Shown here piece after piece: positions 6,107 through 24,463 of a stretch of 57,493 nucleotides of DNA; positions within the stretch are counted from its first letter, which is position 1; every line of letters starts with the position of its first letter. Below the pieces are notes generated by a model, which was not told where the DNA came from, did no database searches, and saw only the letters and a list, made by a program, of their open reading frames with translations. The DNA is from Cryomorphaceae bacterium (GTDB lineage: Bacteria > Bacteroidota > Bacteroidia > Flavobacteriales > Schleiferiaceae): contig JAFIEY010000196.1 of NCBI GenBank assembly GCA_020832345.1, positions 1-57,493 on the forward strand. The letters are read 5' to 3'. A program made the translations under genes and the position numbers.

Positions 6107-6163
6107 TGAGTCTGCTCCAAAAAGTCCCTTTCTGCCAAAATCTTCCTTTTTGGAGTGGACTCA
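6107..6163 (-). repeat. R1 dispersed repeat, copy C (short 57-bp form), possible bidirectional terminator
   Basis: TGAGTCTGCTCCAAAAAG at the left pairs with CTTTTTGGAGTGGACTCA at the right over 18 positions, with two wobble pairs in RNA. The loop holds TTTCTGCCAAAATCTTC. The long form's internal 70-90 bp are missing. It lies between the converging small lipoprotein gene and sbcC, where a strong hairpin followed by A/T-rich DNA could stop both transcripts. Confidence 0.88.
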
Positions 6164-9216: not shown

Positions 9217-9229
9217 TTTTCAAAAAAAA

Positions 9230-10441
9230 TTAAAGACGGTGATCGTTCAGTGATTCCAGAATTTCGGTAAAGGCTTCCATCAGTGCAGTTTCGTCCTTTG
9301 TGTCGTATTCCTGTTGCAGTCGTTTGCGAAAGATTTCGGTAGGGGAGTACTGGTTGATTTGGTCATCCGCTTCCAAAAGTTCATCCGTACGCTTGAGGTT
9401 CGACTCAAAAGTCACCCTGTAGTCGATGATTTGTACCCCATCCACTGGCGGTTGTTGCACCACTTCCATCAACTGACGGATCACTTCGGCGCTTTCTTGA
9501 GGTTCGTGAACCCGCAGTTCCAGCAAATCGGGCAGCGCACTATCCGATTGGTAGTCGCGTAAGGCAATCATCACCTCCTGGAGCGTGCCGGAAATTCGGT
9601 GCAGTCGGCGCCAAGTCGGGATTTTCAGAGATTGAATGTCAAACGACTTGCCTTGCCATTCCAGGATCAGCACTTGTTTGGCGGTATCGCGTTCACTAAA
9701 ACTCAGCGGGATTGGTGAGCCCGAATAGCGAATATGATCCGCACCCGCGAGTTGCGGTTTGTGGATGTGTCCCAAGGCCACGTAATGCGGATCATCGCCG
9801 AAAATCAGGTGCTCCACTCCGGCTTGGTTACCCACTTGTATATCGCGTTCACTTTCCGAAACCGAGGCCCCGTGTACAAAGAGGTGTCCCATCGCGATAA
9901 ACGGTTTATCGGCATTATGTTCCCGGTAAAAAGCATTTACATTCGCGTAATATTGCCGGATGCCTTCCCGCACCATAGAAGCCTTATCCTCAAACGATTC
10001 CCCTGCCGCCGACTTGCGAATGTCGCGTTCACGCAGAAAAGGTACTGCGGCCACCACCAGCTTTTCACCGCGCACATCCACATCCACAAAAACGTCCTCC
10101 ACCCGGTCTGTTACGGCGCCGATCACCGAAATATCCAGCGCCTTTAGCAAGTCCTTCGGTGCGTTTAGCACCGCCGGCGAATCATGATTTCCCCCCGTGA
10201 TGATGATTTTACAAGCATGCGACAATTTAATCGCTCGTCGCAAAAAATCGTAGTACTGTTGTAGCGCCGCCTGCGACGGATTACTCATGTCAAACAAATC
10301 GCCCGACATCAGCAGCACATCCACCCTTTCAGACTCAATGGTGAGCAGCAGCCAGTCCAGAAACCGCGCAATATCTTCAGACAAATCCACCTTGCGAAGT
10401 TGCTTTCCCAGGTGCCAATCGGCGGTGTGGAGAATTTTCAT
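9230..10441 (-). CDS. sbcD: Exonuclease subunit SbcD, Mre11-like nuclease
   Basis: 403 residues beginning MKILHTADWHLGKQL. Metallophosphatase motifs appear in order: D-x-H in TADWHLG, GDLFD, GGNHDS, GHLFVHG and GHIHKPQ, the two-manganese active site of Mre11/SbcD. The C-terminal part holds the capping domain that contacts SbcC. It acts as the nuclease of the SbcCD complex, giving 3'-5' exonuclease and hairpin endonuclease activity. It lies upstream of sbcC with a 13-bp gap. No clear TAnnTTTG box is seen immediately upstream. Confidence 0.96.
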   Translation of the reverse strand: MKILHTADWHLGKQLRKVDLSEDIARFLDWLLLTIESERVDVLLMSGDLFDMSNPSQAALQQYYDFLRRAIKLSHACKIIITGGNHDSPAVLNAPKDLLKALDISVIGAVTDRVEDVFVDVDVRGEKLVVAAVPFLRERDIRKSAAGESFEDKASMVREGIRQYYANVNAFYREHNADKPFIAMGHLFVHGASVSESERDIQVGNQAGVEHLIFGDDPHYVALGHIHKPQLAGADHIRYSGSPIPLSFSERDTAKQVLILEWQGKSFDIQSLKIPTWRRLHRISGTLQEVMIALRDYQSDSALPDLLELRVHEPQESAEVIRQLMEVVQQPPVDGVQIIDYRVTFESNLKRTDELLEADDQINQYSPTEIFRKRLQQEYDTKDETALMEAFTEILESLNDHRL

Positions 10442-11293: not shown

Positions 11294-12622
11294 ATGATAT
11301 CAGAAAAAGCCCAATCAAAGGTTCTTTTAGAAAGGAGAAAAAAAATAGTCGCCAATGGCGTTGGTGTGTTTAACACCGCTACGGTAAAACACGCAAGTGG
11401 CGCCATCATAACAGATGTAGATGGCAACGAACTTATCGACTTCGCCGGTGGCATAGGTGTCGTCAACGCAGGACATTGTCCGGAACCGGTGGTAAAGGCC
11501 ATTTGCGAACAAGCGGCAAAATACCTCCACACCAGTTTTAATGTCGTTACTTACGAACCATATATAGCCTTGTGCGAAGAACTCGCCGAAATACTTCCCC
11601 ACGGAAAAGACACCAAGGCAATGCTCATCAGCACGGGAGCCGAAGCGGTGGAAAACGCGATTAAAATCGCCCGCCAAGCAACTAAACGCCCTGCCATCAT
11701 TTGCTTTACCGAGGCATATCACGGACGCACCTTGATGGGCATGACCCTCACCAGCAAAGTAAACTACAAAACATCGTCCGGCCCTTTCGCCCCAGAAGTT
11801 TACCGCATTCCCTTTCCTAATTTTTACAAATACCATGTGAATCAAAATATGGACGAATTTGTGGAAACCGAGCTTATCCGACTGCGCGAAAGCGCACATA
11901 GTTTGGTGGACATCAAAACCGTTGCGGCCATCATCATTGAACCCATACAGGGCGAAGGAGGGTTTAACCCTGTGCCTCAAAAATATTTGGAAGGTCTAAG
12001 GGCCTTTTGTGATGAACACGGTGTTTTGCTCATCATGGACGAAATTCAAAGTGGCTTTTGCCGCACCGGCCATTGGGCAAGCTGGCAACACTACAATGTA
12101 CAACCAGACATAAGTACATACGCCAAATCATTGGGGTCTGGATTGCCCATCGCGGCTGTACTGGGCAGAGCCGAAATAATGGACGCTGCTGCTTCAGGCA
12201 CCATTGGCGGAACATACATAGGCAGTCCGGTATGCTGCGCCGCTGCTTTGGCCACCATACAATACATGAAGGACTTAAACCTGAATCAACGCGCCATTCA
12301 CATAGGGGAAATTGTAATTGACCGCATGACAAGCCTTCAAAACGAGTTCCCGGAAATAGGTGATGTACGCGGCGTTGGCGCCATGATAGGTATCGAATTC
12401 ATCAAAGACGAAGACCCCGGAAGCCCAAATACAGAGCTTTGTAATAACATAGTCAAAGGCTGTGCGGAAGAAGGACTAATTCTCATTAGCGCGGGAACGT
12501 TTAAAAATGTCATCCGCATCCTTTCACCACTTGTCATTACCGACAAAGAATTACACCGTGGACTGGACATCATTGAAAGACAAATTAGAAAGTATAGTCC
12601 CGGGAAAACGCAACAGGTCTAA
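11294..12622 (+). CDS. gabT: Class III aminotransferase, probable 4-aminobutyrate aminotransferase
   Basis: 442 residues of the PLP-dependent fold-type I class III family. Visible are the cofactor-binding STGAEAVENAIK, EAYHGRT, the aspartate loop MDEIQSGFCRTG, and the Schiff-base lysine K278 in TYAKSLGSGLP. These agree best with GABA or related omega-amino acid aminotransferases, which move the terminal amino group to 2-oxoglutarate. The dehydrogenase at 19195-20550 would oxidise the resulting succinate semialdehyde. It leads a co-directional set of genes for decarboxylation and amide hydrolysis. Alternative substrates are putrescine, beta-alanine or acetylornithine, so the symbol is a best guess. 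Confidence 0.8.
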   Translation: MISEKAQSKVLLERRKKIVANGVGVFNTATVKHASGAIITDVDGNELIDFAGGIGVVNAGHCPEPVVKAICEQAAKYLHTSFNVVTYEPYIALCEELAEILPHGKDTKAMLISTGAEAVENAIKIARQATKRPAIICFTEAYHGRTLMGMTLTSKVNYKTSSGPFAPEVYRIPFPNFYKYHVNQNMDEFVETELIRLRESAHSLVDIKTVAAIIIEPIQGEGGFNPVPQKYLEGLRAFCDEHGVLLIMDEIQSGFCRTGHWASWQHYNVQPDISTYAKSLGSGLPIAAVLGRAEIMDAAASGTIGGTYIGSPVCCAAALATIQYMKDLNLNQRAIHIGEIVIDRMTSLQNEFPEIGDVRGVGAMIGIEFIKDEDPGSPNTELCNNIVKGCAEEGLILISAGTFKNVIRILSPLVITDKELHRGLDIIERQIRKYSPGKTQQV

Positions 12623-12704
12623 TCGACATTTCAAATGTCGTTGTCGTGACAGCCGTTTTTCCCAAAACCATTTTGAACCAAAAAAAAGCACTAAAACAAT
12701 TAGA

Positions 12705-13637
12705 ATGAAGCCATTTGCAATAGCAGGAATACAAATGAAGATATCAGCCGTCGCGTCTAACGTAGAGATGATGAAGCTGAAGCTGGATATAACCATGAAC
12801 CTCTACCCTTGGGTAGATATGGTTGTGTTTAGCGAGTTGTGCGGATTTGGCCCATTAACCTATACCGCACAGGAAATACCCGGAACGTTTGAAAAGGAAA
12901 TGCAGGCAATGGCAAAGAAATACGGAATCTGGTTGCTTCCGGGTTCCATTTTTGAAAAGAGCGAGGGAAATATTTACAACACGGCCACGGTCATCAACCC
13001 CAACGGGGAAATCGTTACGCGTTACCGAAAGATGTTTCCGTTTTTTCCCTACGAAGTTGGCGTTACGCCCGGATCGGAGTTTTGTGTGTTTGACGTACCC
13101 GGCGTTGCCCGTTTTGGCCTTTCCATTTGTTACGACATGTGGTTTCCGGAAACCGTGCGCACGCTTGCCGTAATGGGCGCTGAGGTCATACTCCACCCCA
13201 CAATGACCGGCACCATAGACCGTGACATCGAGTTGTCTATCGTTCGGGCAATGGCCGCCGTAAATCAATGTTACTTTTTCGATGTCAATGGACTGGAGTC
13301 CGGTGGCAGCGGCCGATCCATTGTTTGTGGACCGGACGGTCGTGTGATTTATCAGGCGGAGGGCAACGAAGAAATTTTCCCACTTGAACTCAACATTGAA
13401 CGCGTTCAAAGAAGTCGCGAACTGGGCGTACTGAGATTGGGACAGCCTTTAAAGAGTTTTAGAGACCACATAGGACAGTTTGGCATTTATCAGCCGGGCG
13501 CGCATTTGCCTTATTTGAATTCCCTGGGGTCACTCATCAAGCCGAGCAAACTCGATGATTTGACAAAATTAAAAATGCAAGAACATCAATATGAACCACC
13601 TACAAGCCCTTCAGGATTTAAGGGTTATGAGGAATAA
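12705..13637 (+). CDS. Carbon-nitrogen hydrolase (nitrilase superfamily)
   Basis: 310 residues from the ATG at 12705. Longer upstream readings overlap the aminotransferase and lack homology, so MKPFAIAGIQMK is chosen. The catalytic triad is visible as E44 (FSELCGFG), K109 (YRKMFPFF) and C142 (ICYDMWFPE). The family cleaves amides, nitriles and carbamoyl groups; N-carbamoylputrescine amidase and omega-amidase belong here. In this cluster it could release the amine or acid from an amide intermediate of polyamine breakdown. The stop is followed two bases later by the next gene, so they are certainly co-transcribed. Confidence 0.88.
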   Translation: MKPFAIAGIQMKISAVASNVEMMKLKLDITMNLYPWVDMVVFSELCGFGPLTYTAQEIPGTFEKEMQAMAKKYGIWLLPGSIFEKSEGNIYNTATVINPNGEIVTRYRKMFPFFPYEVGVTPGSEFCVFDVPGVARFGLSICYDMWFPETVRTLAVMGAEVILHPTMTGTIDRDIELSIVRAMAAVNQCYFFDVNGLESGGSGRSIVCGPDGRVIYQAEGNEEIFPLELNIERVQRSRELGVLRLGQPLKSFRDHIGQFGIYQPGAHLPYLNSLGSLIKPSKLDDLTKLKMQEHQYEPPTSPSGFKGYEE

Positions 13638-13639
13638 AA

Positions 13640-14047
13640 ATGAACAACATGGGAGGAACACGGCCAAACAAAAAAACGACCATTAACAACTGCATATCCT
13701 GGTTTGAGATTCCAGCAATCAATTTCCAGCAATCGGTTGACTTCTACAATCACATCTTTGGATTTGAGATGGAAGTCAATCACAGCGGCAATTATGCCAT
13801 GGCTTTTTTTCCGTCTGTAAACGGTATAGGCGGTGCAATTGTGGCCGGACCGGGCTCCACACCCGGTGTTTCGGGTCCGTTGATCTACCTCAATGCCGGT
13901 GAAGATTTGAACGTTGTTTTAAATCGAATAGAGCCGGCGGGCGGACGGATTGTGATGTCCAAAACACGCATCGATGAAGATTCAGGTTGTTTTGCCATTT
14001 TCATCGATTCGGAAGGCAATAAACTTGCACTTCACTCCAATAAATAG
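13640..14047 (+). CDS. VOC (glyoxalase/bleomycin-resistance-like) family protein
   Basis: 135 residues with one VOC domain: WFEIPAINFQQSVDFYNHIFGFEM at residues 21-44, then GPLIYLNAGEDLNVVLNRIEPAGGRI, and a closing DSEGNKLALHS. The family uses a paired beta-alpha-beta-beta-beta module that often binds a metal through His and Glu. The specific reaction is unknown. It begins two bases after the hydrolase gene and ends inside the first bases of repeat R2. In this context it may act on an intermediate or be a detoxifying partner, which is inference only. Confidence 0.85.
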   Translation: MNNMGGTRPNKKTTINNCISWFEIPAINFQQSVDFYNHIFGFEMEVNHSGNYAMAFFPSVNGIGGAIVAGPGSTPGVSGPLIYLNAGEDLNVVLNRIEPAGGRIVMSKTRIDEDSGCFAIFIDSEGNKLALHSNK

Positions 14048-14227
14048 TGTCTGTCTATAAATCTGATAGCTGCGTTATGCCTGCCTTTACCGAAGGTTTT
14101 AGGGCTTGGTAAAAAATAGGTCATTTACTTCAGTAAACGCACTGTTTTTCCCCGATAGCTATCGGGGTCGCAAGCCTTGCTCTCGCACTTTCTAGCCTAG
14201 CCACAGACTTTATGGACAAGCTGTAAA
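14046..14227 (+). repeat. R2 dispersed repeat, first copy
   Basis: About 182 bp beginning AGTGTCTGTC and ending near GACAAGCTGTAA. It matches 18934-19119 over its whole length, sharing TAGCTGCGTTATGCCTGCC, CCGAAGGTTTTAGGGCT and GCAAGCCTTGCTCTCG. It contains the perfect palindrome CCCCGATAGCTATCGGGG, which has decayed in the other copy. The ends GTCTGTC and GACA(A/G)GC are weakly inverted. No protein is encoded. Confidence 0.85.
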
Positions 14228-14356
14228 TAGAGTCAAAAATCCAAGTCTTTGATAAGAACCCGCCAATCAGAGATGCTGAAATTATGGAGATAAAAGCAAG
14301 TTTTGGCGGCTCAATGAGACCTCTGAAAAATAATTAAGACTGAATAAAAATCTATT
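14228..14356. other. Short spacer with possible degenerate reading frame
   Basis: Between R2 and the decarboxylase start, one frame stays open for about 36 codons to a stop at 14337 and contains FDKNPPIRDAEIM and SFGGSMRPLKNN. It has no good start because the repeat supplies an upstream stop. It could be the tail of a gene cut by the R2 insertion, or chance. No promoter box is seen. Confidence 0.2.
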
Positions 14357-17101
14357 ATGCCAGAAACACTACCCCTTAGTTCCCCCCACTACAACGTCAC
14401 TCAACTTCGACTGGAAACGTGGAACACGCTTAAAAACGAAACCGCAAAGCTTCAGAAATGCAATCGAGGCTCTACCGACGAAAGAGATTTGAAAAACGAT
14501 GTTCGCCGTCTTTTCGCGAAGCTTGAAGGGATAGAGAGTTATTTCGCCTTTCCCGGACTCATTCGCTTACGGGCCTTAAACGACATGCTCAATCGCATGG
14601 AGCACACCGCACTGGCCAATAAGGTTTCGGTAATCACAAAACTACTCGTAAGCGACAAGTACAGGAGCAACCCCGATTTTTTCGATGAAGATGAAGAGGG
14701 CATTGAGGTCCTTGAAAACGGCGAACACACCATTGGGGTCAAAAAAAACTACTTCGAAGTATTGTTTGTCGAGGACATCTCCGTTCAAGAGGAAAACAAA
14801 CTAAGAAGTGACCTCAGAGATCTTCGCGGCGCAAACGAGCAGTTCAATTACGGAATCGTAGTGCAACGAAGCTTTGAAGACGCTATGATTGCCCTGCACT
14901 TCAATTACAACATACAAGCAGTGGTGGTGAGATACGCGCCCCCTTACCACTCCAAAAAAATAACGCCCCTGCTCAAACCTTTTCTTCAAAGTGTTTTAAA
15001 ACTTGGGTTGGCGTCTCATCCGCAAACCGAACTCGGCCCTGTTTTGGGCAAACTCATCAAAAAGTTTCGCCCGGAACTCGACACTTACTACGTCACCGAT
15101 ACCTCTCTGAGCAATTTAAAGGACAGTACGTTAAAGAGTTTTAGACGCATTTTTTACCGCACGGAAGACCTTCAGGAACTGCACCTCACCATTTTGAGAG
15201 GCATCAGTGAGCGCTACGAAACACCCTTTTTCTCGGCCCTGAAAGAATACAGCAAAAAGCCAACCGGGGTATTTCACGCCATGCCAATTTCCCGGGGCAA
15301 CTCCATTTTCAAATCGAGGTGGATTAATGATTTTGGAAATTTCTACGGGCGAAATATGTTTCTCGCAGAAACCTCCTCCACTTCCGGCGGATTGGACTCC
15401 CTGCTGCAACCTACCGGATCGTTGAAAAAAGCGCAAACAAAGGCCAGCGAAGCATACGGATCGCTCAATACATTTTTCGTCACAAACGGAACGTCCACGG
15501 CCAACAAAATAGTCGTGCAAGCTTTGGTAAAACCCGGAGATGTCATTCTTATCGATCGCGATTGCCACAAATCGCATCACTACGGACTCGTGTTGGCCGG
15601 CGCCTATCCGGTCTATCTGGATTCATACCCCATAGAAAAGTATTCCATGTACGGTGCGGTGCCATTAAAGCAAATCAAAGAAAAACTACTGCGCTTAAAA
15701 GAAGCCGGTCGGATGGACTTGGTGAAAATGCTGCTGCTGACTAACTGCACCTTCGATGGGCTAGTTTACAACGTAGAGCGCGTAATGGAGGAAATACTGG
15801 CCATCAAGCCGGATATGATTTTCCTTTGGGATGAAGCGTGGTTTGCATTTGCCGGATTCACCTACAATTACAAGCAACGAACGGGAATGTTTGTCGCAAA
15901 AAAACTGCACGAAAAATACCGAAGCAGCAGTTATCGGGACACCTACAACGAGCACATCAAACATTTAAAGAAAGGCGAAATCCCCACCCTTCCGGATCCG
16001 GATAAGGTTCGAATTAGAGTGTATTCCACTCAGAGCACCCACAAAACCCTGAGCAGTTTTAGACAGGGGTCGATGATTCACATTTGGGACGAGGATTTTC
16101 ACCGAAAAAGTGAAAACACCTTTTTGGAATCCTATATGACACATACCTCCACTTCACCAAACTATCAAATGCTGGCATCTCTGGACGCTGGGCGCAGACA
16201 GGTGCAATTTGAAGGCTACGAACTGGTCGAAAAAAGCATTGAAATGGCCATGGTGCTGCGGGCGAAAATTAACGACCACCACCGATTAAATAAGTACTTT
16301 GATGTTTTGACGCTGAGCGACTTTATTCCAAAGGAATATCGAAAATCGGGACTGTCGGAATACTACAATCGCAAAAGTGGATGGAACCGAATGGAAACGG
16401 CCTGGGAAAACGACGAGTTTGTCCTCGATCCCACCAAAATCACCTTACACATTGGCAAAACCGGGGTGGACGGCGATACGTTTAAAAACAAGTACCTGAT
16501 GGATAAATTTAATATCCAGATCAATAAAACCTCGCGAAACACGGTTTTATTCATGACCAACATTGGTACCACCAGAGGCAGTGTAACCTACCTTACCAAT
16601 GCGCTTCTCAAAATTGCCGATGAACTGGACAAGGAATTTCTGTCTCTCAACGACAATGAAACCAAAATTAGACAGGAGAAAATCCACTCCCTGACCAAAG
16701 ACTTTCCGCCCCTACCGGATTTTAGTTATTTCCACCATTCATTTCAGGCCGTTCCCGGCGTTCCGGGCGGCAACATCAGAGATGCGTTTTTCCTGGCTTA
16801 CAACGAGGAAAACTACGAATACATACCCATGGAAGCATGTCTGGCTTCTATGGAAGGAGGGCGAACGCTGGTCGCTTCGTCCTTCATCATTCCCTACCCA
16901 CCGGGGTTCCCTGTGCTTGTTCCCGGACAAGTTATAAGCATTGAAATCATCCGTTTTCTAACGGCCATTGATGTGTCTGAAATTCACGGATACAGGGCAG
17001 ACCTCGGGCTTCGAGTTTTTAAAGAAGTCGTTCTTAACAGACAAAAAACCGTGACGTCAATGGGTATTTCGGGAAATACCTCCAAAAAACAATCTAATTA
17101 A
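14357..17101 (+). CDS. Orn/Lys/Arg family basic amino acid decarboxylase
   Basis: 914 residues, longer than typical AdiA/LdcI-type enzymes of about 715-755. The order is a 110-residue helical N-terminus, a wing-like region (about 115-260), and the PLP fold-type I core from about 300: FFVTNGTSTANKIV, DRDCHKSHHY, WDEAWFAFAGF, and STHKT with the Schiff-base lysine K563. The C-terminal domain follows (YIPMEACLASMEGG and PYPPGFPVLVPGQ). The family removes CO2 from arginine, lysine or ornithine to give agmatine, cadaverine or putrescine. The ATP-grasp gene begins 11 bp later, so the two form one transcript. Which amino acid it uses cannot be read from the sequence; arginine is favoured by analogy. 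Confidence 0.88.
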   Translation: MPETLPLSSPHYNVTQLRLETWNTLKNETAKLQKCNRGSTDERDLKNDVRRLFAKLEGIESYFAFPGLIRLRALNDMLNRMEHTALANKVSVITKLLVSDKYRSNPDFFDEDEEGIEVLENGEHTIGVKKNYFEVLFVEDISVQEENKLRSDLRDLRGANEQFNYGIVVQRSFEDAMIALHFNYNIQAVVVRYAPPYHSKKITPLLKPFLQSVLKLGLASHPQTELGPVLGKLIKKFRPELDTYYVTDTSLSNLKDSTLKSFRRIFYRTEDLQELHLTILRGISERYETPFFSALKEYSKKPTGVFHAMPISRGNSIFKSRWINDFGNFYGRNMFLAETSSTSGGLDSLLQPTGSLKKAQTKASEAYGSLNTFFVTNGTSTANKIVVQALVKPGDVILIDRDCHKSHHYGLVLAGAYPVYLDSYPIEKYSMYGAVPLKQIKEKLLRLKEAGRMDLVKMLLLTNCTFDGLVYNVERVMEEILAIKPDMIFLWDEAWFAFAGFTYNYKQRTGMFVAKKLHEKYRSSSYRDTYNEHIKHLKKGEIPTLPDPDKVRIRVYSTQSTHKTLSSFRQGSMIHIWDEDFHRKSENTFLESYMTHTSTSPNYQMLASLDAGRRQVQFEGYELVEKSIEMAMVLRAKINDHHRLNKYFDVLTLSDFIPKEYRKSGLSEYYNRKSGWNRMETAWENDEFVLDPTKITLHIGKTGVDGDTFKNKYLMDKFNIQINKTSRNTVLFMTNIGTTRGSVTYLTNALLKIADELDKEFLSLNDNETKIRQEKIHSLTKDFPPLPDFSYFHHSFQAVPGVPGGNIRDAFFLAYNEENYEYIPMEACLASMEGGRTLVASSFIIPYPPGFPVLVPGQVISIEIIRFLTAIDVSEIHGYRADLGLRVFKEVVLNRQKTVTSMGISGNTSKKQSN

Positions 17102-17112
17102 AAACACCAATC

Positions 17113-18783
17113 ATGGCTAATAAAAAGCAATCAGAAACCAATTCTAAGAAACCAACGAGCAACAAGGCCAAAGCGGCAAATGTTACCGGAAAGGATGACG
17201 CCAAAATTCCCAAACGAGACAACTCAAGCTCAACGCCTAAAAAAGCAGCAAAACCCGTAGCAAGCAAGGTGGCATCCGGAAAGGTGGCAACCAAACTGAA
17301 AACACCATCCACAACGGGGAAAACGCCTGGAAAAAACACATTAAACGGTGTTTCCGATATCCGGCGATCGTTTCACAAAAACGAAGAACCCCTGTACTTT
17401 ATAAGTGCCACAAACTTCAACCTACTCGGTGCCGACGAATGGATAAAAGGGTTTAAGTTCATCACGTACATCGAGTGCTTTGACGGATTACACCCCAATG
17501 TTTTTTCTCCAAAAGAAGAGATTCCCCACAATGAGTTTGAGGGCATAGAAGACATCAACAATTACTTGCTCCAGCATCCCGAAGTTCAAAACTATCTCAA
17601 AACCAGATCGGTTGACGGAAGGGCGGGCAAGGCCATGTTTCTCATGTTCAATGAAGAAACCGAAAAACTCGCGGAAAAGTTGGGACTGGAAATCATGTTT
17701 CCCAAAGCAGAAATGCGAACTTTTCTCGACAACAAAGTCAACACCAACCGCATCGCTGAAAGAGCCGGTGTAGCATGTGTGCCCTATGTGCTGTCTCCCG
17801 TAAAAAACTACGAACACCTGAGGGAAGTTTCTGAAGAACTAGGCAATGAGCTTGTCATTCAGTCGCCTTTTGGAGACTCCGGACACACAACCTTTTTCAT
17901 TTCCAATGAGGAAGAGTACGACAAGTACGCCGAAGAAATCGAAGCAGAAGAGGAGGTGAAAATCATGAAGCGCATTCGATGCCGTGGTTCTGCCATTGAA
18001 GCTTGTGTTACCCGCCACGGAACAATCGTCGCCCCACTTATGACCGAACTGGTCGGTTTTAAAGAACTAACCCCTTACGAAGGCGGTTGGTGTGGAAACG
18101 AAATATATCCGAATGCCTTTACACCCGAATTGAGAAAGAAGGCCATCAAATATACACAGCTGTTTGGAAATCAACTGAGGGAAGAAGGCTATAAAGGTTA
18201 TTTTGAATTGGACTTCTTAATCGATCAGGACAATGGTGAAATCTATCTCGGCGAGCTCAACCCAAGGGTTACCGGCGCGAGTTCCATTACGAACCATGCC
18301 GTATTTGCACTTGCCGACGCACCCCTATTCATCTTTCACATCATGGAATGGATGGACATTGACTACAAGCTCGATGTAAAAGCACTCAACAGACGGTGGG
18401 CTAAACAGGACAACCTCGATGGATGGAGTCAATTGATCATCAAGCATACCGCCGACACCATAGAGTACGTCACTGCATCACCACGATCGGGAATCTGGCG
18501 CATGTACGACACCGGTCATATCCAATTTGATCGAATGGACACCCACCGCAGGGCCGTGGAAAACGAAAATGAAGCCTTCTTTCTCCGAATTGCCAAAGAC
18601 GGCGACTACCTTTACGAAGGCGCCGATATGGGCATACTCGTAACACGAGGCCGGATGATGACGGATGACTTCAATTTGAACAACCGCGCAAAACATTGGA
18701 TTAAAGCCATTCGCGCTCAGTTTGCATCGGAGATGGTAGAGGATAAGACTAAGCCTAAGCTAACGGGCAGCCTCACAAAATAA
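17113..18783 (+). CDS. ATP-grasp domain enzyme with long basic N-terminal tail
   Basis: 556 residues. The first 75 or so are low-complexity and rich in Lys, Thr, Ser, Pro and Ala, like histone H1 tails. The rest is an ATP-grasp fold resembling biotin carboxylase and D-Ala-D-Ala ligase-type enzymes: LVIQSPFGDSGHTTFFI (phosphate loop region, about residue 250), KIMKRIRCRGSAIEACV, and the metal site GYFELDFLI...YLGELNPRVTGAS (about 367-395). Such enzymes activate a carboxylate with ATP and join it to an amine or other nucleophile. No biotin-carrier or carboxyltransferase gene is nearby, which makes biotin carboxylase unlikely. Placed 11 bp behind the decarboxylase, it may ligate the amine product to an acid such as glutamate. 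That role is inference. Confidence 0.8.
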   Translation: MANKKQSETNSKKPTSNKAKAANVTGKDDAKIPKRDNSSSTPKKAAKPVASKVASGKVATKLKTPSTTGKTPGKNTLNGVSDIRRSFHKNEEPLYFISATNFNLLGADEWIKGFKFITYIECFDGLHPNVFSPKEEIPHNEFEGIEDINNYLLQHPEVQNYLKTRSVDGRAGKAMFLMFNEETEKLAEKLGLEIMFPKAEMRTFLDNKVNTNRIAERAGVACVPYVLSPVKNYEHLREVSEELGNELVIQSPFGDSGHTTFFISNEEEYDKYAEEIEAEEEVKIMKRIRCRGSAIEACVTRHGTIVAPLMTELVGFKELTPYEGGWCGNEIYPNAFTPELRKKAIKYTQLFGNQLREEGYKGYFELDFLIDQDNGEIYLGELNPRVTGASSITNHAVFALADAPLFIFHIMEWMDIDYKLDVKALNRRWAKQDNLDGWSQLIIKHTADTIEYVTASPRSGIWRMYDTGHIQFDRMDTHRRAVENENEAFFLRIAKDGDYLYEGADMGILVTRGRMMTDDFNLNNRAKHWIKAIRAQFASEMVEDKTKPKLTGSLTK

Positions 18784-18787
18784 GAAG

Positions 18788-18931
18788 TGAGTCCACTCCA
18801 AAAAGTCCCTTTCTGCCAAAATATTCCTTGTCAGTAGTTTTTCAAATCCTCACTAACAATTAGTTAGCTCCGGTTTAAAAACCCCTTCCGCGTCGATTTT
18901 GATTGAAATCATCCTTTTTGGAGTGGACTCA
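18788..18931 (-). repeat. R1 dispersed repeat, copy E (long form, 144 bp)
   Basis: Both ends are intact: TGAGTCCACTCCAAAAAG at the left and CTTTTTGGAGTGGACTCA at the right form an 18-bp perfect inverted repeat. The body contains the longer variant with an extra AATTAGTTAGCT segment shared with copy F. It starts four bases after the ATP-grasp stop codon and ends two bases before R2 copy 2, so the two repeat families abut. Confidence 0.9.
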
Positions 18932-18933
18932 GA

Positions 18934-19119
18934 AGTGTCTGTCTGGAAAGTCCGATAGCTGCGTTATGCCTGCCTTTACCGAAGGTTTTAGGGCTCAGTA
19001 TAAAAATGCTCATTTACTTTATGTAAACTGCGCTTTTTCCCCAATATCTATCGGGGTTGCAAGCCTTGCTCTCGAACTTTCTACACTGGCCACTTTGACT
19101 TTATTGACAGGCTGTAAGT
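18934..19119 (+). repeat. R2 dispersed repeat, second copy
   Basis: About 186 bp, same orientation as 14046-14227 and 4.9 kb away. The palindrome of the first copy has become CCCCAATATCTATCGGGG. Together the copies bracket the decarboxylase and ATP-grasp genes. Confidence 0.85.
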
Positions 19120-19194
19120 AATCTTTGTAAGCAAACACGAATGGCAGGGATCGTTTATAGACGCCAAAATACATTAACCTCAAAACAACAAACC

Positions 19195-20550
19195 ATGGAA
19201 TTTCACAGCATAAACCCGTACAATGGAAAGCGTGTTGGAACGTACACTGCGCTTACAACCGAGGCGCTGGACAACAAGCTCAACAAATCGGAAGAGGCAT
19301 TTGTGAGTTGGCGTCAAAAACCGCTTTCACACAGAACAAATCTGTTAAAAAAGACGGCTCTATTGCTTCGCGAAAACAGACGTGAATACGCGCAAGCGAT
19401 AACGATGGAAATGGGAAAGCCCATCTCTGAATCACTGGCAGAAATCGACAAATGCGCATGGGTATGTGATTACTATGCAGAAAACGCAGAATCGTTTCTG
19501 GCATCTGAGACCATCAAAACCGATGCAGCACAAAGTTTTGTGAGGCACGACCCCATCGGCACAGTATTGGCCATTATGCCCTGGAACTTCCCGTTTTGGC
19601 AAGTCTTGCGCTTTGCCGCTCCCACTTTAACCGCTGGAAACACAGGACTTTTAAAGCATGCGCCCAACGTCTTCGGGTGCGCTGTAAAAATTGAAGAGCT
19701 ATTCACCAAAGCCGGTTATCCGGAGGGTGTGTTTCAAAATTTAATCATTCATCACGATCAAACCGAAAGGATCGTTTCCCATAAGGCAGTAAAAGCGGTT
19801 ACCCTTACCGGAAGCGAAACCGCCGGTTCGGCCGTAGCCCAAATCTCCGGAAAGTACATCAAAAAAAGCCTGCTGGAGCTGGGTGGAAGCAATGCCTTTA
19901 TCGTATTAGATGATGCCAATATCGATCGGGCTGTAAAAACTGCTGTTTCGGCTCGAATGCTCAACGGCGGCCAAAGCTGCATTGCGGCCAAGCGCTTTAT
20001 CCTCATGGCCTCCATATACGATGTGTTTGTTGCGAAGTTTACAGAGGCCGTACGGAAATTAAATGCCGGCGACACAAATGATGAAACCACCCAAATCGGA
20101 CCACTGGCCAGAAGAGACTTAGCTGACCAGCTCAACAAACAAGTGAAAGATTCCGTTGCTCGTGGCGCAGAGTTACTGCTTGGCGGTGGTCGTGACAACT
20201 GCTTTCACGAACCAACCGTGTTGGGAAACGTAATGCCCGGCATGCCTGCATTTGATGAAGAAACCTTTGGTCCGTTGGCCGCAATGATTAAAGCAAAGGA
20301 TATGGATCACGCCTATTCGTTGTCTCAACAATCAAACTATGGTTTGGGTGTATGCGTCTTTACTGAAGACACGGAGAAAGCCCTTGAATACGCCCACAAA
20401 ATTAGCGACGGCGCATATTTCATCAACGAATTGGTTAAATCAGACCCGAGGTTACCGTTTGGTGGCAGCGGCCTTTCAGGCTATGGACGCGAGCTCTCAA
20501 AAGACGGCATGATGGAGTTTGTAAATCGTAAAACCGTGTATGTGAAGTAG
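19195..20550 (+). CDS. NAD(P)-dependent aldehyde dehydrogenase, probable succinate-semialdehyde dehydrogenase
   Basis: 451 residues from the ATG at 19195 (MEFHSINPYNGKR); a start 18 codons earlier adds residues with no counterpart in the family. ALDH superfamily markers are MPWNFPFWQ, LTGSETAGSA, the general base E228 in LLELGGSN and the catalytic C262 in NGGQSCIAAKR, with EETFGPLAAM and PFGGSGLSGYGRE near the end. The family oxidises aldehydes to acids. Its short length and the SINPYNG start match the SSADH/GabD-like branch. With the aminotransferase it would finish GABA breakdown to succinate. It is separated from the ATP-grasp gene by two repeats. Confidence 0.88.
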   Translation: MEFHSINPYNGKRVGTYTALTTEALDNKLNKSEEAFVSWRQKPLSHRTNLLKKTALLLRENRREYAQAITMEMGKPISESLAEIDKCAWVCDYYAENAESFLASETIKTDAAQSFVRHDPIGTVLAIMPWNFPFWQVLRFAAPTLTAGNTGLLKHAPNVFGCAVKIEELFTKAGYPEGVFQNLIIHHDQTERIVSHKAVKAVTLTGSETAGSAVAQISGKYIKKSLLELGGSNAFIVLDDANIDRAVKTAVSARMLNGGQSCIAAKRFILMASIYDVFVAKFTEAVRKLNAGDTNDETTQIGPLARRDLADQLNKQVKDSVARGAELLLGGGRDNCFHEPTVLGNVMPGMPAFDEETFGPLAAMIKAKDMDHAYSLSQQSNYGLGVCVFTEDTEKALEYAHKISDGAYFINELVKSDPRLPFGGSGLSGYGRELSKDGMMEFVNRKTVYVK

Positions 20551-21767: not shown

Positions 21768-22145
21768 ATGGAAACAAGTATTGTATATAAGAAGGAGGCA
21801 TACCTAATCATTGGTAAATGCATGGAGGTCCACAATGAATTAGGTCATGGCTTTTTGGAGTCTGTTTACAAATCAGCCCTGGAGATTGCCTTTACAATGG
21901 ACGGCATTCAATACCAAAGAGAGAAGCCTTATTCGGTTTACTACAAGGACTTTTTATTGCCACAAAAGTTTTATGCGGATTTCGTGGTTATGGATAACAT
22001 AATTTTGGAAGTGAAGTGTGTCTCAAAGCTAGGCAACGAACATATCGCACAAACTCTCAATTATTTAAAAGTTTCCGGTAATAAACTTGCACTATTGGTG
22101 AATTTCGGTAAAGACAGGTTGGAGTACCAAAGACTAATCCTTTGA
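21768..22145 (+). CDS. GxxExxY family protein (PD-(D/E)xK-like fold)
   Basis: 125 residues with the name-giving motif G-F-L-E-S-V-Y at about residues 28-34 (ELGHGFLESVYKSAL). Later come FYADFVVMDNIILEVKCV, which has the D...E-x-K pattern of PD-(D/E)xK nucleases, and the closing LNYLKVSGNKLALLVNFG. The family (TIGR04256) is widespread in Bacteroidota and other environmental bacteria and has no proven function. Full length. Here it is flanked on both sides by CACGAAT hairpin repeats, an association that may be functional. Confidence 0.92.
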   Translation: METSIVYKKEAYLIIGKCMEVHNELGHGFLESVYKSALEIAFTMDGIQYQREKPYSVYYKDFLLPQKFYADFVVMDNIILEVKCVSKLGNEHIAQTLNYLKVSGNKLALLVNFGKDRLEYQRLIL

Positions 22146-22169
22146 AGAGGCCACCAACAAAATCAACAT

Positions 22170-22350
22170 CTCCACGAAAAAATATTTACCACGAATAATG
22201 CATTTTTACATTCGTGTTCATTCGTGCAATTCGTGGCAATCAAAAAAGAATTTGTGGCTTTCACATAGCCGCGCAAGGTTTAGCCACGAATGCACACGAA
22301 TTTTCACGAATGATGTGTTTTTATTCGTGTTTATTGGTATAATTCGTGGC
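22170..22350. repeat. R3b CACGAAT hairpin repeats, two units
   Basis: One unit spans 22170-22238 and another 22283-22350. The second reads GCCACGAATGCACACGAA at its left and ends AATTCGTGGC, an imperfect hairpin with several ACGAAT/ATTCGT pairs. The same unit recurs twice at 23696-23877. Confidence 0.88.
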
Positions 22351-22469
22351 AATCAAAAATAAATTGTGGCAGAGACTTAAAGATTAGAAAACGTCTTTGT
22401 AAAGGTTGGTGAATACACAACGCGTGATGGATGTATCCGCCTTAAAACATAACCTTTGGCGAATAAATT

Positions 22470-22521
22470 CACTAAAAGTTATGACTTTTGGTGAAAGTAT
22501 AATCTTGATTCGCTATATTTG
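22470..22521 (+). promoter_or_regulatory. Promoter with overlapping inverted repeat before the DUF4143 ATPase
   Basis: TATATTTG (22514-22521) is an exact -7 box 12 bp before the ATG at 22533. An inverted repeat CACTAAAAGT / ACTTTTGGTG (22470-22479, 22484-22493) with one mismatch overlaps the expected -33 region and looks like a repressor site. Confidence 0.55.
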
Positions 22522-22532
22522 CAAATAAAAAC

Positions 22533-23660
22533 ATGTATGTAAGGTCTTTAGCGGAAGCCATTAAAAAGCGAAAGAATTCGGGCAAAGCAATTGTTTTGCT
22601 CGGGCCAAGACAAGTTGGAAAAACCACGCTCATTGAGCATTTGCTCGAAGAAGAAGCGTTTTTGTTTTTAGATGGTGATGATCCTGGAATTCGCAATTTG
22701 CTCTTTGAGCCAAACACGGTGCAAATTCGTTCCATTATCGGCAATCATAAATACGTGTTTATCGATGAAGCGCAGCGGATAAACAATATTGGTCTAACGA
22801 TGAAAATCATTACTGACCGCTTTAAACATGTTCAATTATTTGCAAGTGGTTCATCTTCATTTGATTTAAGTTCAAGTGTCAATGAGCCGCTTACTGGTAG
22901 GAAATGGGAGTTTCAATTATTTCCAATTTCCTGGGAAGAATACGAAACCCATCACGGATACCTTCACGCCCATCAAACATTGGAAAACAGGTTGATTTAC
23001 GGATTCTATCCCGATGTGTTGAACCACCCGGGTGATGAGTATAGTGTGCTTGAAAACCTGACGTCCAGCTATTTATACAGAGATATTTTAGCTTATGCAG
23101 GAATACGAAAACCCGAAGTTCTCGATAAACTGGTACAAGCTTTGGCTCTTCAAGTTGGTAGTGAAGTCAATTACACTGAATTGGCTCAACTGGTGAATGT
23201 CGATAAAAACACCGTTGCCAAATACATCGATATTTTAGAAAAGGGCTATGTCGTCTTTAGACTCAATAGTTTTAGTCGGAATTTACGCAACGAAATCAAA
23301 ACCAATAACAAAATATATTTCTACGACAATGGGATTCGTAATTTGGTCATACGGAATTTCAGTCCTTTACACGAACGCAGTGATAAGGGGGCGCTTTGGG
23401 AAAATTTTCTCATTGCAGAAAGGGTAAAGCAAAATGCCTATTATCAACGAATGGCGCGCACATACTTTTGGCGAACAAAACAACAGCAAGAGGTGGATTT
23501 TGTAGAGGAGCGAAACGGAAAGATTTACGGCTATGAATTTAAATGGAGCATGAAAAAATCCGCTAAAATCCCTAAAACATTCACCAATGCATATAATGCA
23601 GAAACAATGATTGTTCACAGCGAAAATTTTAGAGAATTTGTTGTTTTGTCCAAGAGTTAA
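22533..23660 (+). CDS. AAA ATPase with DUF4143 domain
   Basis: 375 residues. The N-terminal AAA_14 domain has Walker A GPRQVGKTT (about residues 24-32) and Walker B YVFIDEAQRI (about 74-83). A winged-helix segment follows (NYTELAQLVNVDKNTVAKYI). The C-terminal DUF4143 part has a PD-(D/E)xK-like pattern: EVDFVEERNGKIYGYEFKWS. Proteins of this type are common in mobile or repeat-rich regions and their task is unproven. Full length and apparently intact. It shares the repeat-flanked block with the GxxExxY gene. Confidence 0.9.
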   Translation: MYVRSLAEAIKKRKNSGKAIVLLGPRQVGKTTLIEHLLEEEAFLFLDGDDPGIRNLLFEPNTVQIRSIIGNHKYVFIDEAQRINNIGLTMKIITDRFKHVQLFASGSSSFDLSSSVNEPLTGRKWEFQLFPISWEEYETHHGYLHAHQTLENRLIYGFYPDVLNHPGDEYSVLENLTSSYLYRDILAYAGIRKPEVLDKLVQALALQVGSEVNYTELAQLVNVDKNTVAKYIDILEKGYVVFRLNSFSRNLRNEIKTNNKIYFYDNGIRNLVIRNFSPLHERSDKGALWENFLIAERVKQNAYYQRMARTYFWRTKQQQEVDFVEERNGKIYGYEFKWSMKKSAKIPKTFTNAYNAETMIVHSENFREFVVLSKS

Positions 23661-23695
23661 TCGAACAATCCAAAAATCACCACGCATAAAGCTCA

Positions 23696-23877
23696 GCCAC
23701 GAATGCACACGAATCTTCACGAATGATTTGTTTTTATTCGTGTTTATTGGTGCTATTCGTGGCTACACAAAAGTATTTGAGGCCACAACATCACCACGCA
23801 TAAAGCTAGGCCACGAATGCACACGAATCTTCACGAATGATTTGTTTTTATTCGTGTTTATTGGTGTAATTCGTGGC
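23696..23877. repeat. R3b CACGAAT hairpin repeats, two further units
   Basis: Units at 23696-23763 and 23810-23877 are nearly identical to each other and to 22283-22350. Both are preceded by CACCACGCATAAAGCT. With the R3a array they surround the GxxExxY and DUF4143 genes on both sides. Confidence 0.9.
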
Positions 23878-23910
23878 AATAAAAGTGAATTAGCGGCAAA
23901 AGAATAGAAT

Positions 23911-23955
23911 AACTTTCATTTATTATTGAAAGTTCAGAAACGTGTTGTATATTTG
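23911..23955 (+). promoter_or_regulatory. Perfect inverted repeat and promoter of the GbsR/MarR-type regulator
   Basis: AACTTTCA (23911-23918) and TGAAAGTT (23927-23934) are a perfect 8-bp inverted repeat with an 8-bp gap, about 14 bp upstream of the -7 box TATATTTG (23948-23955). The ATG follows four bases later, so the mRNA is probably leaderless. The dyad fits an autoregulatory operator for the encoded dimeric winged-helix protein. Confidence 0.7.
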
Positions 23956-23959
23956 TGGC

Positions 23960-24463
23960 ATGGAATTCAAAGAAGCAAAATTAAAATTTATTGAATCGTG
24001 GGGAGCACTTGGTGGACAATGGGGCATTAATAAAACTATGGCCCAAATCCACGCACTTTTGATGGTAACTGATGAGTCGCTTTCCATGGAGGAGGTAATG
24101 GCGGAGCTGAATATTTCACGCGGTAATGCGTCGATGAACTTGCGCGCGTTAATGGATTGGGGCATCGTATATAAAACCTATAAATCCGGTGAACGGAAAG
24201 AATACTTTGTTGCCGAAAAAGATCTGAACGAACTGGCCATCAAAATTTCTCAAGAACGAAGCAAAAGAGAAATCAAACCCGCTTTAAAAGTGCTAAAGGA
24301 GGTGTCTTCACTCAAAAATCCCAAAAACAAAGAAGAAGTGCATTTTGTGAAACAAACCACTAAACTCTACAAGTTTGTTGGCAAGGCCGATAATGTCATT
24401 GATAAAATTATCGAGTATAAAGACAATTGGCTCTCACAACTCTTCACCAAACTCATCAAGTGA
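23960..24463 (+). CDS. GbsR/MarR-type transcriptional regulator
   Basis: 167 residues from the ATG at 23960; an in-frame GTG at 23942 lies upstream of the promoter box and is excluded. The winged-helix region contains INKTMAQIHALLMVTDESLSMEEVMAELNISRGNASMNLRALMDWG (split across residues 25-70) and the wing YKTYKSGERKEYFV. Family members bind inverted repeats as dimers; the one in front of this gene is a good candidate site. It leads a three-gene operon with a membrane protein and an epimerase. What it senses is unknown. Confidence 0.88.
   Translation: MEFKEAKLKFIESWGALGGQWGINKTMAQIHALLMVTDESLSMEEVMAELNISRGNASMNLRALMDWGIVYKTYKSGERKEYFVAEKDLNELAIKISQERSKREIKPALKVLKEVSSLKNPKNKEEVHFVKQTTKLYKFVGKADNVIDKIIEYKDNWLSQLFTKLIK

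What the first reader, a model, noticed from the sequence alone, without database searches (positions are those of the whole stretch)
11294..20550. Polyamine/GABA cluster that may be a Puu-like pathway from unrelated enzymes
Six co-directional genes encode an omega-aminotransferase, nitrilase-type hydrolase, VOC protein, Orn/Lys/Arg decarboxylase, ATP-grasp enzyme and semialdehyde dehydrogenase. In the Puu route a ligase adds glutamate to putrescine, later enzymes oxidise it, a hydrolase frees GABA, and an aminotransferase and dehydrogenase finish. Here the ATP-grasp protein could replace the PuuA ligase and the nitrilase the PuuD hydrolase. No PuuB-like oxidase is present, so the aminotransferase or another enzyme would have to act on the amine. 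The ligase role is a hypothesis.
Basis: partly seen in the sequence, partly recalled or inferred. Interest (0 to 1): 0.8.

Follow-up and report, generated by a model that had tools for sequence, protein, structure and literature searches.

The report
Decarboxylase and ATP-grasp pair, GABA cluster
A real, widely shared bacterial gene cluster pairs a decarboxylase of unknown substrate with an uncharacterised ATP-using enzyme and GABA-breakdown enzymes; it may be an untested version of the "protect, oxidise, release" way of eating polyamines, built from enzymes unrelated to the known ones.

Summary
The six genes are present as described and form a conserved unit. In 149 sampled genomes, 9 of 9 with the decarboxylase (DC) hold the ATP-grasp gene (ATPG), and 9 of 10 the reverse. 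The order AT-NIT-VOC-DC-ATPG-(C45)-ALDH recurs in Bacteroidota; rearranged forms occur in Proteobacteria. Many loci add a gene the window lacks, a C45-type amidohydrolase beside ATPG, a better PuuD analogue than the nitrilase; yet two relatives keep the window's six genes without it.

ATPG is named biotin carboxylase in NCBIfam but lacks that enzyme's bicarbonate base, so a ligase is more plausible. In three plasmid loci ATPG and C45 sit in an arginine/ornithine-to-GABA operon, which fits a protect/deprotect role. Against it: no amine oxidase in the cluster, no substrate tested, and three genomes with DC and ATPG where neither hydrolase was found. DC is a homologue of M. tuberculosis Rv2531c, activity unknown.

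Verdict: observation confirmed; interpretation partly supported; new variant of a known kind, moderate confidence.

The parts
11294..12622 (+). class III aminotransferase (AT), GABA-aminotransferase-like
   Evidence: PF00202 2.9e-121; best NCBIfam models are GABA transaminases, below their cut-offs; best PDB match 1sf2, 4-aminobutyrate aminotransferase, 8.9e-109; 41% identical to PuuE
12705..13637 (+). nitrilase-superfamily amidohydrolase (NIT)
   Evidence: PF00795 6.3e-31; Glu, Lys and Cys (43, 108, 141 counted from base 12708) kept in at least 95% of 50 aligned NITs; ATG at 12705
13640..14047 (+). VOC / glyoxalase-fold protein, role unknown
   Evidence: PF00903 7.8e-07; same strand and near ATPG in 28 of 53 full-flank loci
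14357..17101 (+). Orn/Lys/Arg-type PLP decarboxylase (DC), homologue of Rv2531c
   Evidence: OKR_DC_1 2.5e-76; PDB 9n0n 1.3e-241; PLP lysine K563, D492 and H404 kept in 18 of 18 family members aligned
17113..18783 (+). ATP-grasp protein (ATPG), candidate amino acid:amine ligase; residues 1-73 Lys-rich and low confidence in the model
   Evidence: NF005096 829 bits, cut-off 684; ATP-grasp fold in AlphaFold2 model; metal-site D367/E381/N383 and R385 kept, BC base E296 replaced by A389
19141..20550 (+). aldehyde dehydrogenase of the Sad/YneI succinate-semialdehyde type (ALDH); true start probably 19195
   Evidence: PF00171 4.1e-130; best PDB matches succinate-semialdehyde dehydrogenases 3vz1, 4it9 and Sad 8qms; no NCBIfam cut-off reached among the 25 rows shown
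18784..19140 (.). gap where many relatives carry the C45 hydrolase gene; holds an 18-nt perfect inverted repeat instead
   Evidence: of the ten best tblastn hits of 47 C45 proteins on the window (best E 0.073) none lies here; inverted repeat 18788-18805/18914-18931

Best explanation
A Puu-style catabolic route from an ornithine/arginine-family amino acid to GABA and succinate, built from enzymes unrelated to PuuA and PuuD. DC removes the carboxyl group of the amino acid. ATPG uses ATP to couple an amino acid, most likely glutamate, to the amine, masking it and preventing cyclisation. The free end is oxidised to an aldehyde and then an acid. An amidohydrolase (C45 where present, NIT in the window's lineage) releases the masked omega-amino acid (GABA). 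AT and the Sad-type ALDH turn GABA into succinate. Shown: gene order, families, intact catalytic residues, co-occurrence. Inferred: every substrate, the ligase reaction, the order of steps. Unassigned: the amine-oxidising step (AT or an unlinked enzyme).
For: DC and ATPG co-occur (9 of 9 and 9 of 10). GABA-AT-like and SSADH-type enzymes lie in the cluster. ATPG is 50-76% identical to the window's in a 26-sequence alignment across phyla. It keeps ATP-grasp metal residues but not BC's E296. A C45 hydrolase is on the same strand near ATPG in 40 of 53 full-flank loci, with a Cys kept in at least 95% of 47 aligned. In Shinella, XES5 and RAC02, ATPG-C45 sits with an ornithine-racemase-like/arginase fusion, a D-amino acid dehydrogenase, RidA, an AruI-type decarboxylase (over cut-off), a ureohydrolase and an ALDH, an Arg/Orn-to-GABA type of operon. 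Cupriavidus pBB1 has an ALDH whose best model is PuuC (below cut-off) near NIT-ATPG-C45. Glu/Leu/Phe/Val-type dehydrogenase or glutamate-synthase-family genes lie near some loci. The fold list includes BesA (Z 16.5), a gamma-glutamyl ligase by recall.
Against: By sequence ATPG is nearest to biotin carboxylases and carbamoyl-phosphate synthase, not to amino-acid ligases, and BesA's Z is tied with theirs. In three genomes (G041, G100, G115) DC and ATPG are present but no NIT (E 1e-20) and no C45 (E 1e-10) was found, so hydrolysis is not always part of the system. No amine oxidase is in the cluster. DC lacks the acidic residue at the CadA E526 site (N723, 18 of 18), so a plain Lys/Orn substrate is uncertain. 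The window's genome has no C45. The Shinella-type operon can also be read as a guanidino (2-ketoarginine) route that has no free amine to mask, and the XES5 plasmid holds a DC of its own elsewhere. The route needs AT and ALDH to act twice or helpers elsewhere.
Confidence: 0.4

Rival explanations
1. Biosynthesis and recycling of an aminoacyl-amine. DC and ATPG together make an amide (an amino acid coupled to a biogenic amine) that the cell uses as solute, store or secreted compound; the hydrolases, AT and ALDH only break it down again in some species.
For: DC-ATPG is the most constant core (DC near ATPG in 49 of 53 loci); in G041, G100 and G115 it occurs without any NIT or C45 found in the genome. 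Three annotated proteobacterial loci add peptide-type or other ABC transporter genes. Onishia/Halomonas loci place it inside what looks like an ectoine-utilisation operon.
Against: Most Bacteroidota loci carry GABA-type catabolic genes in the same cluster (over all loci AT 33 of 53, ALDH 32 of 53). The Shinella-type operon reads as catabolic.
Confidence: 0.22
2. The ligase acts first. ATPG masks the side-chain amine of ornithine (or lysine), and DC acts on the N-acylated amino acid, perhaps with loss of the amino group so that it yields the aldehyde directly. This would explain why no amine oxidase is present.
For: In Shinella-type operons the place beside ATPG is taken by racemase, D-amino acid dehydrogenase, RidA and a 2-oxo acid decarboxylase, which together could turn an amino acid into an aldehyde, while ATPG, C45 and an ALDH stay. 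DC has Asn at the CadA E526 site and Gln at a Glu shared by AdiA, CadA and SpeC, 18 of 18.
Against: The same Asn and Gln occur in the AspT-linked DCs without ATPG and in Rv2531c, so they are not tied to the ligase. XES5 has a DC elsewhere on the same plasmid, so replacement of DC there is not shown. No precedent for oxidative decarboxylation was tested here.
Confidence: 0.1
3. ATPG is a bicarbonate-using carboxylase or carbamoyl-forming enzyme, as its database name suggests, and the nitrilase removes a carbamoyl group.
For: NF005096 is named biotin carboxylase. BC, PurK and CPSase are the nearest folds, BC and CPSase the nearest sequences. NIT's best NCBIfam model is N-carbamoylputrescine amidase.
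Against: BC base E296 is replaced. None of the six genes is a biotin carrier or carboxyltransferase. NIT scores 80 bits against a cut-off of 410 for that amidase.
Confidence: 0.08
4. The DC substrate is not Orn/Arg but lysine or 2,4-diaminobutyrate, so the route ends in glutarate or beta-alanine.
For: In Onishia/Halomonas DC lies among genes that match ectoine utilisation, whose intermediate is diaminobutyrate (recalled), and Phyllobacterium has a DC near eutBC. One S. meliloti DC is near ectB.
Against: The window's enzymes are GABA-AT and succinate-semialdehyde types, and the ornithine-racemase-like/arginase fusion points to C5 amino acids.
Confidence: 0.12

Closest known systems
E. coli Puu pathway (PuuA ligase, PuuB oxidase, PuuC, PuuD hydrolase, PuuE, then Sad/GabD)
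   Same: proposed logic of masking an amine, oxidising, hydrolysing to GABA; a GABA aminotransferase (41% to PuuE) and a Sad-type dehydrogenase
   Different: no PuuA, PuuB or PuuD homologue in the window; ligase would be ATP-grasp and hydrolase C45 or nitrilase; a decarboxylase is built in
Rv2531c, probable amino acid decarboxylase (PDB 9n0n, 9n0o)
   Same: near full-length homologue of the window's DC, 1.3e-241; its activity is not clarified according to PMC12910592 (passages seen)
   Different: window DC is paired with ATPG; what lies beside Rv2531c was not examined; other DC relatives are paired with AspT-type antiporters
BesA, ATP-grasp gamma-glutamyl ligase (PDB 8yi6; function recalled)
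   Same: ATP-grasp fold, Z 16.5, 356 residues aligned
   Different: 13% identity, Z tied with biotin carboxylase, PurK and CPSase; not among the sequence matches
Biotin carboxylase (AccC)
   Same: nearest sequence and fold; metal residues kept
   Different: bicarbonate base E296 absent; no biotin carrier or carboxyltransferase gene among the six

Membership tests
E. coli Puu pathway | PuuA glutamine-synthetase-type ligase in the cluster | tested here: not met
   tblastn of PuuA against the window: best E 0.66; the rest of the genome was not searched for PuuA
E. coli Puu pathway | PuuB flavin oxidase | tested here: not met
   no hit in window; best in own genome 28% identity, 38.9 bits
E. coli Puu pathway | PuuD hydrolase in the cluster | tested here: not met
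   no hit in window
E. coli Puu pathway | PuuD hydrolase elsewhere in the genome | tested here: inconclusive
   four partial PF07722 matches of 31-36 bits, all over the Pfam cut-off of 20.5, but the family also rings in 14 of 14 control genomes
E. coli Puu pathway | GABA aminotransferase (PuuE) | tested here: met
   41% identity over 417 columns; family level only, curated cut-offs not reached in the rows shown
E. coli Puu pathway | gamma-glutamylated intermediates | not testable with these tools
   needs enzyme assays or metabolomics
Biotin carboxylase | ATP-grasp metal and phosphate residues (AccC E276, E288, N290, R292) | tested here: met
   D367, E381, N383 and R385 aligned by hhalign; letters checked
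Biotin carboxylase | bicarbonate base E296 | tested here: not met
   A389 in the window; in the 26 rows Ala in all but three (one Cys, two Val); alignment; role of E296 recalled
Biotin carboxylase | biotin carrier / carboxyltransferase partner in the cluster | tested here: not met
   none among the six genes
Orn/Lys/Arg decarboxylase superfamily | PLP lysine and cofactor-site residues | tested here: met
   K563, D492, A494, H404, S380 and S560 in 18 of 18
Lysine/ornithine decarboxylase proper | acidic residue at CadA E526 for the side-chain amine (role recalled) | tested here: not met
   Asn in 18 of 18; SpeC has Glu, AdiA Thr
Nitrilase superfamily | Glu-Lys-Cys triad | tested here: met
   kept in at least 95% of 50 aligned proteins
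N-carbamoylputrescine amidase (AguB) | curated score TIGR03381 | tested here: not met
   80.1 bits against 410.25; none of three matches in the genome reaches it
ATP-grasp gamma-glutamyl ligase (BesA-like) | structural match clearly above other ATP-grasp enzymes | tested here: inconclusive
   Z 16.5, tied with BC, PurK and CPSase

The most novel reading that the evidence does not exclude
ATPG and its amidohydrolases form a protect/deprotect cassette that different bacteria plug into different ways of shortening ornithine-type amino acids: the DC in Bacteroidota, or racemase plus dehydrogenase plus 2-oxo acid decarboxylase in Shinella. The DC then acts on the N-glutamyl amino acid and yields the aldehyde directly, so no amine oxidase is needed: a new GABA route and a new reaction for the family of Rv2531c.
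Probability: 0.08. Interest if true: 0.85.

Novelty: new variant of a known kind. Interest (0 to 1): 0.6.

Why it matters
If true, it would be a polyamine/ornithine-to-GABA route in which the ligase and hydrolase of the Puu pathway are replaced by unrelated proteins. It would give a function to a protein family now named biotin carboxylase in databases, and a lead for the unknown substrate of Rv2531c and its relatives. It occurs in marine Bacteroidota, in Onishia/Halomonas and on rhizobial plasmids, in one case beside nifHDKEN, so it bears on polyamine and GABA turnover in seas and root nodules.

Tried and rejected
DC-ATPG fusion: an open frame of 1504 aa in one genome suggested a fusion. tblastn showed DC and ATPG in different frames, so it was rejected.

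AguB role for NIT: the best NCBIfam model is AguB, but far below its cut-off.

Remnant of C45 in the gap: not among the ten best hits, the only ones looked at.

DC substrate from sequence: comparison with AdiA, CadA and SpeC shows family-wide changes but does not name a substrate, because the AspT-linked DCs share them.

AspT-linked DCs (L093-L096) hint at an amino acid/amine antiport role for that branch; no characterised member was found. Papers on S. meliloti polyamines (PMC10385936 and PMC4960864; passages only) name odc1, odc2, sma0680 and sma0682, which I did not compare with this family. The Rv2531c structure paper itself is not held.

Structure: the ATPG model (mean pLDDT 71.6; residues 1-73, 101-113, 314-334, 387-400 and 546-556 below 50) is too weak at the substrate loops to read a binding site. 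The second structure job was not used. Ligase families other than BesA that are missing from the 50 rows are not excluded.

Literature: PRK06524 (0 papers), a six-term cluster search (0), a gamma-glutamyl/ATP-grasp/putrescine search (0), and gamma-glutamylputrescine with ATP-grasp (1 paper, on fungal FluG, seen as listing and start of abstract only) gave no description of this cluster. A search for BesA brought nothing useful in its ten rows. The library holds open-licence papers only.

L083 and L051 are the same contig (length 173,096) and are both in the counts of 63 and 53. Three Onishia taeanensis loci, and L076/L077/L100, are near copies. Full flank means at least 6 kb before and 3.5 kb after ATPG; only same-strand genes within 9 kb and over set scores count. 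NIT on the opposite strand in L076, L077 and L100 and the aminotransferases of Onishia/Halomonas (low score) are therefore not counted. The scan used stretches of the window's own protein and so favours close relatives. Whether Shinella and RAC02 hold a DC elsewhere is not known: only 40 of 391 records were listed.


Full report
Observation. The nitrilase start is corrected to 12705 and the dehydrogenase start probably to 19195. Gaps are 82, 2, 309, 11 and 357 bases. The tight parts are NIT-VOC and DC-ATPG.

Who they are. AT is GabT-like (PDB 1sf2, 8.9e-109) and 41% identical to PuuE. ALDH is closest to Sad/YneI-type succinate-semialdehyde dehydrogenases and only 27% identical to PuuC. DC is a near full-length homologue of PDB 9n0n, "probable amino acid decarboxylase" (1.3e-241). 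A 2026 review lists 9N0O for M. tuberculosis Rv2531c and says that the structural study did not clarify its activity (PMC12910592, passages seen). ATPG matches NCBIfam NF005096, "biotin carboxylase", far above cut-off (829 against 684), with no close solved relative.

Is ATPG a biotin carboxylase? The aligned metal residues are kept (AccC E276/E288/N290/R292 against D367/E381/N383/R385), but the bicarbonate base E296 is A389 (the role of E296 is recalled). In 26 aligned family members this place is Ala in all but three, one Cys and two Val. None of the six genes is a biotin carrier or carboxyltransferase. The AlphaFold2 model gives an ATP-grasp fold with best matches to BC, PurK and CPSase; BesA, a gamma-glutamyl ligase by recall, is in the list at Z 16.5 against 18.3 for the best row. 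So a carboxylate-amine ligase is more plausible than a carboxylase, but the fold does not prove it.

Conservation. A scan of GTDB genomes gave 43 loci; 32 plasmid records have a match to ATPG, 23 of them over at least 80% of it, and I laid out 11 of the 32. Of 63 loci with ATPG (one contig counted twice), 53 had enough flank. Of these 53, DC is near in 49, NIT in 41, C45 in 40, AT in 33, ALDH in 32 and VOC in 28, on the same strand within 9 kb and above set scores. In an independent draw of 149 genomes of the class, ATPG is over cut-off in 10 and DC in 9, with 9 shared (Fisher p = 1.3e-13, without correction for kinship). In the window's own family 5 of 37 genomes have ATPG at 1e-50 or better (4 of them over cut-off), in its genus 1 of 5, and in the other 23 genomes of the order none: patchy, as expected of a gene set that moves or is often lost. 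Two family members carry exactly the window's six genes and no C45 in the stretch; a third has AT-NIT-DC-ATPG-C45 with a distant ALDH (27%) and no VOC hit; the fourth is a 3.3-kb contig with a partial ATPG and C45.

The seventh gene. Between ATPG and ALDH many loci carry a C45-type autoproteolytic hydrolase (PF03417; NF040521 over cut-off in 5 of 5 such proteins scanned with that library), with a Cys kept in at least 95% of 47 aligned proteins. By recall this family includes isopenicillin N acyltransferase, which handles an alpha-aminoadipyl amide, a near analogue of a gamma-glutamyl amide, and Tan, which hydrolyses beta-alanyl amines. That makes it the natural partner of an amide-forming ligase. 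The window's genome has none. Of the 40 full-flank loci with C45, 32 also have NIT on the same strand, so NIT and C45 are probably not simple substitutes. Five loci with an amidase of one sequence cluster (L063, L070, L079-L081; PF01425 in the three scanned) show no NIT in the stretch.

Context elsewhere. (1) Onishia/Halomonas L064-L068: NIT-ATPG-C45-DC sits between M24-peptidase, AstE-type and Lrp-type genes and SSADH-like, aminotransferase, PALP and OCD genes (families scanned in L064), which resemble an ectoine-utilisation set (recalled; the PALP gene clusters with an annotated EutB). (2) Roseobacter ponti: gabT, a glutamate-synthase-family gene on the other strand, NIT, DC, ATPG, C45, then ABC genes. 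(3) Rhizobium plasmids: DC-ATPG in three annotated records, followed by C45, ABC genes and an amidase in two of them; one record has nifHDKEN beside the cluster. (4) Shinella zoogloeoides, Roseateles sp. XES5 (marked unverified in its record) and Sinorhizobium sp. RAC02: no DC beside ATPG; instead an agmatinase-type ureohydrolase and an AruI-type decarboxylase (both over cut-off in XES5), an ALDH (best models betaine-aldehyde, then HpaE, then aminobutyraldehyde dehydrogenase, all below cut-off), ATPG, C45, a D-amino acid dehydrogenase, an ornithine-racemase-like (397 bits, cut-off 480)/arginase fusion and RidA (RAC02 has no annotation and was matched by clustering). XES5 has a DC elsewhere on the same plasmid. 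(5) Cupriavidus pBB1: an ALDH whose best model is PuuC (656 bits, cut-off 850), NIT, ATPG, C45 and a MocR-type regulator, with no DC in the stretch. (6) Three genomes with VOC-DC-ATPG and neither NIT nor C45 found; a urea transporter gene lies upstream, divergent, in these three.

How it most likely works. The common thread is an ornithine/arginine-type amino acid turned into a compound that ends as GABA, plus an ATP-grasp enzyme and one or more amidohydrolases. In the Puu pathway the ligase masks one amine so that the aldehyde cannot cyclise (recalled). The same need would exist in the Shinella operon if ornithine is its substrate, since the 2-oxo acid and the aldehyde of ornithine would cyclise; ATPG and C45 are among the genes that the rest of that operon does not explain. 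If arginine itself is oxidised there, no free amine needs masking, and this support falls away. I think ATPG and C45 are a protect/deprotect pair and that the window's cluster is a Puu-like route in which NIT does the release. Glutamate as the masking group is a guess, helped by Glu/Leu/Phe/Val-type dehydrogenase or glutamate-synthase-family genes near some loci. The amine-oxidising step is open.

What speaks against it. DC and ATPG can occur without either hydrolase; ATPG's nearest relatives are not ligases of this kind; and DC lacks the acidic side-chain residue of lysine and ornithine decarboxylases (N723 at CadA E526, 18 of 18; the role of E526 is recalled). The AspT-linked branch of DC (L093-L096) lies on plasmids that are not among the 32 with an ATPG match, so DC can work without the ligase. 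These facts leave room for a biosynthetic reading and for a ligase-first order.

Verdict. Observation confirmed. Interpretation partly supported: the Puu-like logic has gained support from context; the assignment of the nitrilase as PuuD equivalent holds at best for the C45-less variant; the ligase reaction is untested.

Noticed in passing
window 18788-18931: Perfect 18-nt inverted repeat with 108 nt between the arms in the ATPG-ALDH gap; 14 bases of its right arm occur again at 6146 and 10608, so it may be a small repeated or mobile element.
   Followed up: partly
L076 13798-15582; clustered copies in L077 and L100: Ornithine-racemase-like domain (397 bits, cut-off 480) fused to an arginase-family domain, near a D-amino acid dehydrogenase and RidA.
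   Followed up: partly
L093-L096: Second branch of the DC family (42-44% identical to the window's) sits beside aspartate-alanine-type antiporters and, in two, aspartate 4-decarboxylase, with no ATPG in the stretch; looks like a decarboxylase/antiporter system of unknown substrate.
   Followed up: partly
L089 15060-17267, L090 4345-6552, L091 4392-6602: Urea transporter joined to an M23 peptidase domain (scanned in L090, others by clustering), divergent from the minimal VOC-DC-ATPG unit in three genomes of two families.
   Followed up: no
L079 1-12471: On a Rhizobium leguminosarum plasmid the DC-ATPG-C45 genes lie next to nifHDKEN.
   Followed up: no
L033, L034, L062, L072, L064-L068, L076, L077, L100, L093: An Lrp/AsnC-type regulator of one sequence cluster recurs near the gene set in Bacteroidota and Proteobacteria, and near the ATPG-less DC of L093.
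   Followed up: partly
window 6226-10441, minus strand: Two genes that read by eye as SbcC and SbcD nuclease subunits lie upstream; no family search was run on them.
   Followed up: no
window 21768-24463: GxxExxY protein, AAA/DUF4143 ATPase and a CudC-like regulator (below its cut-off) follow the cluster.
   Followed up: no
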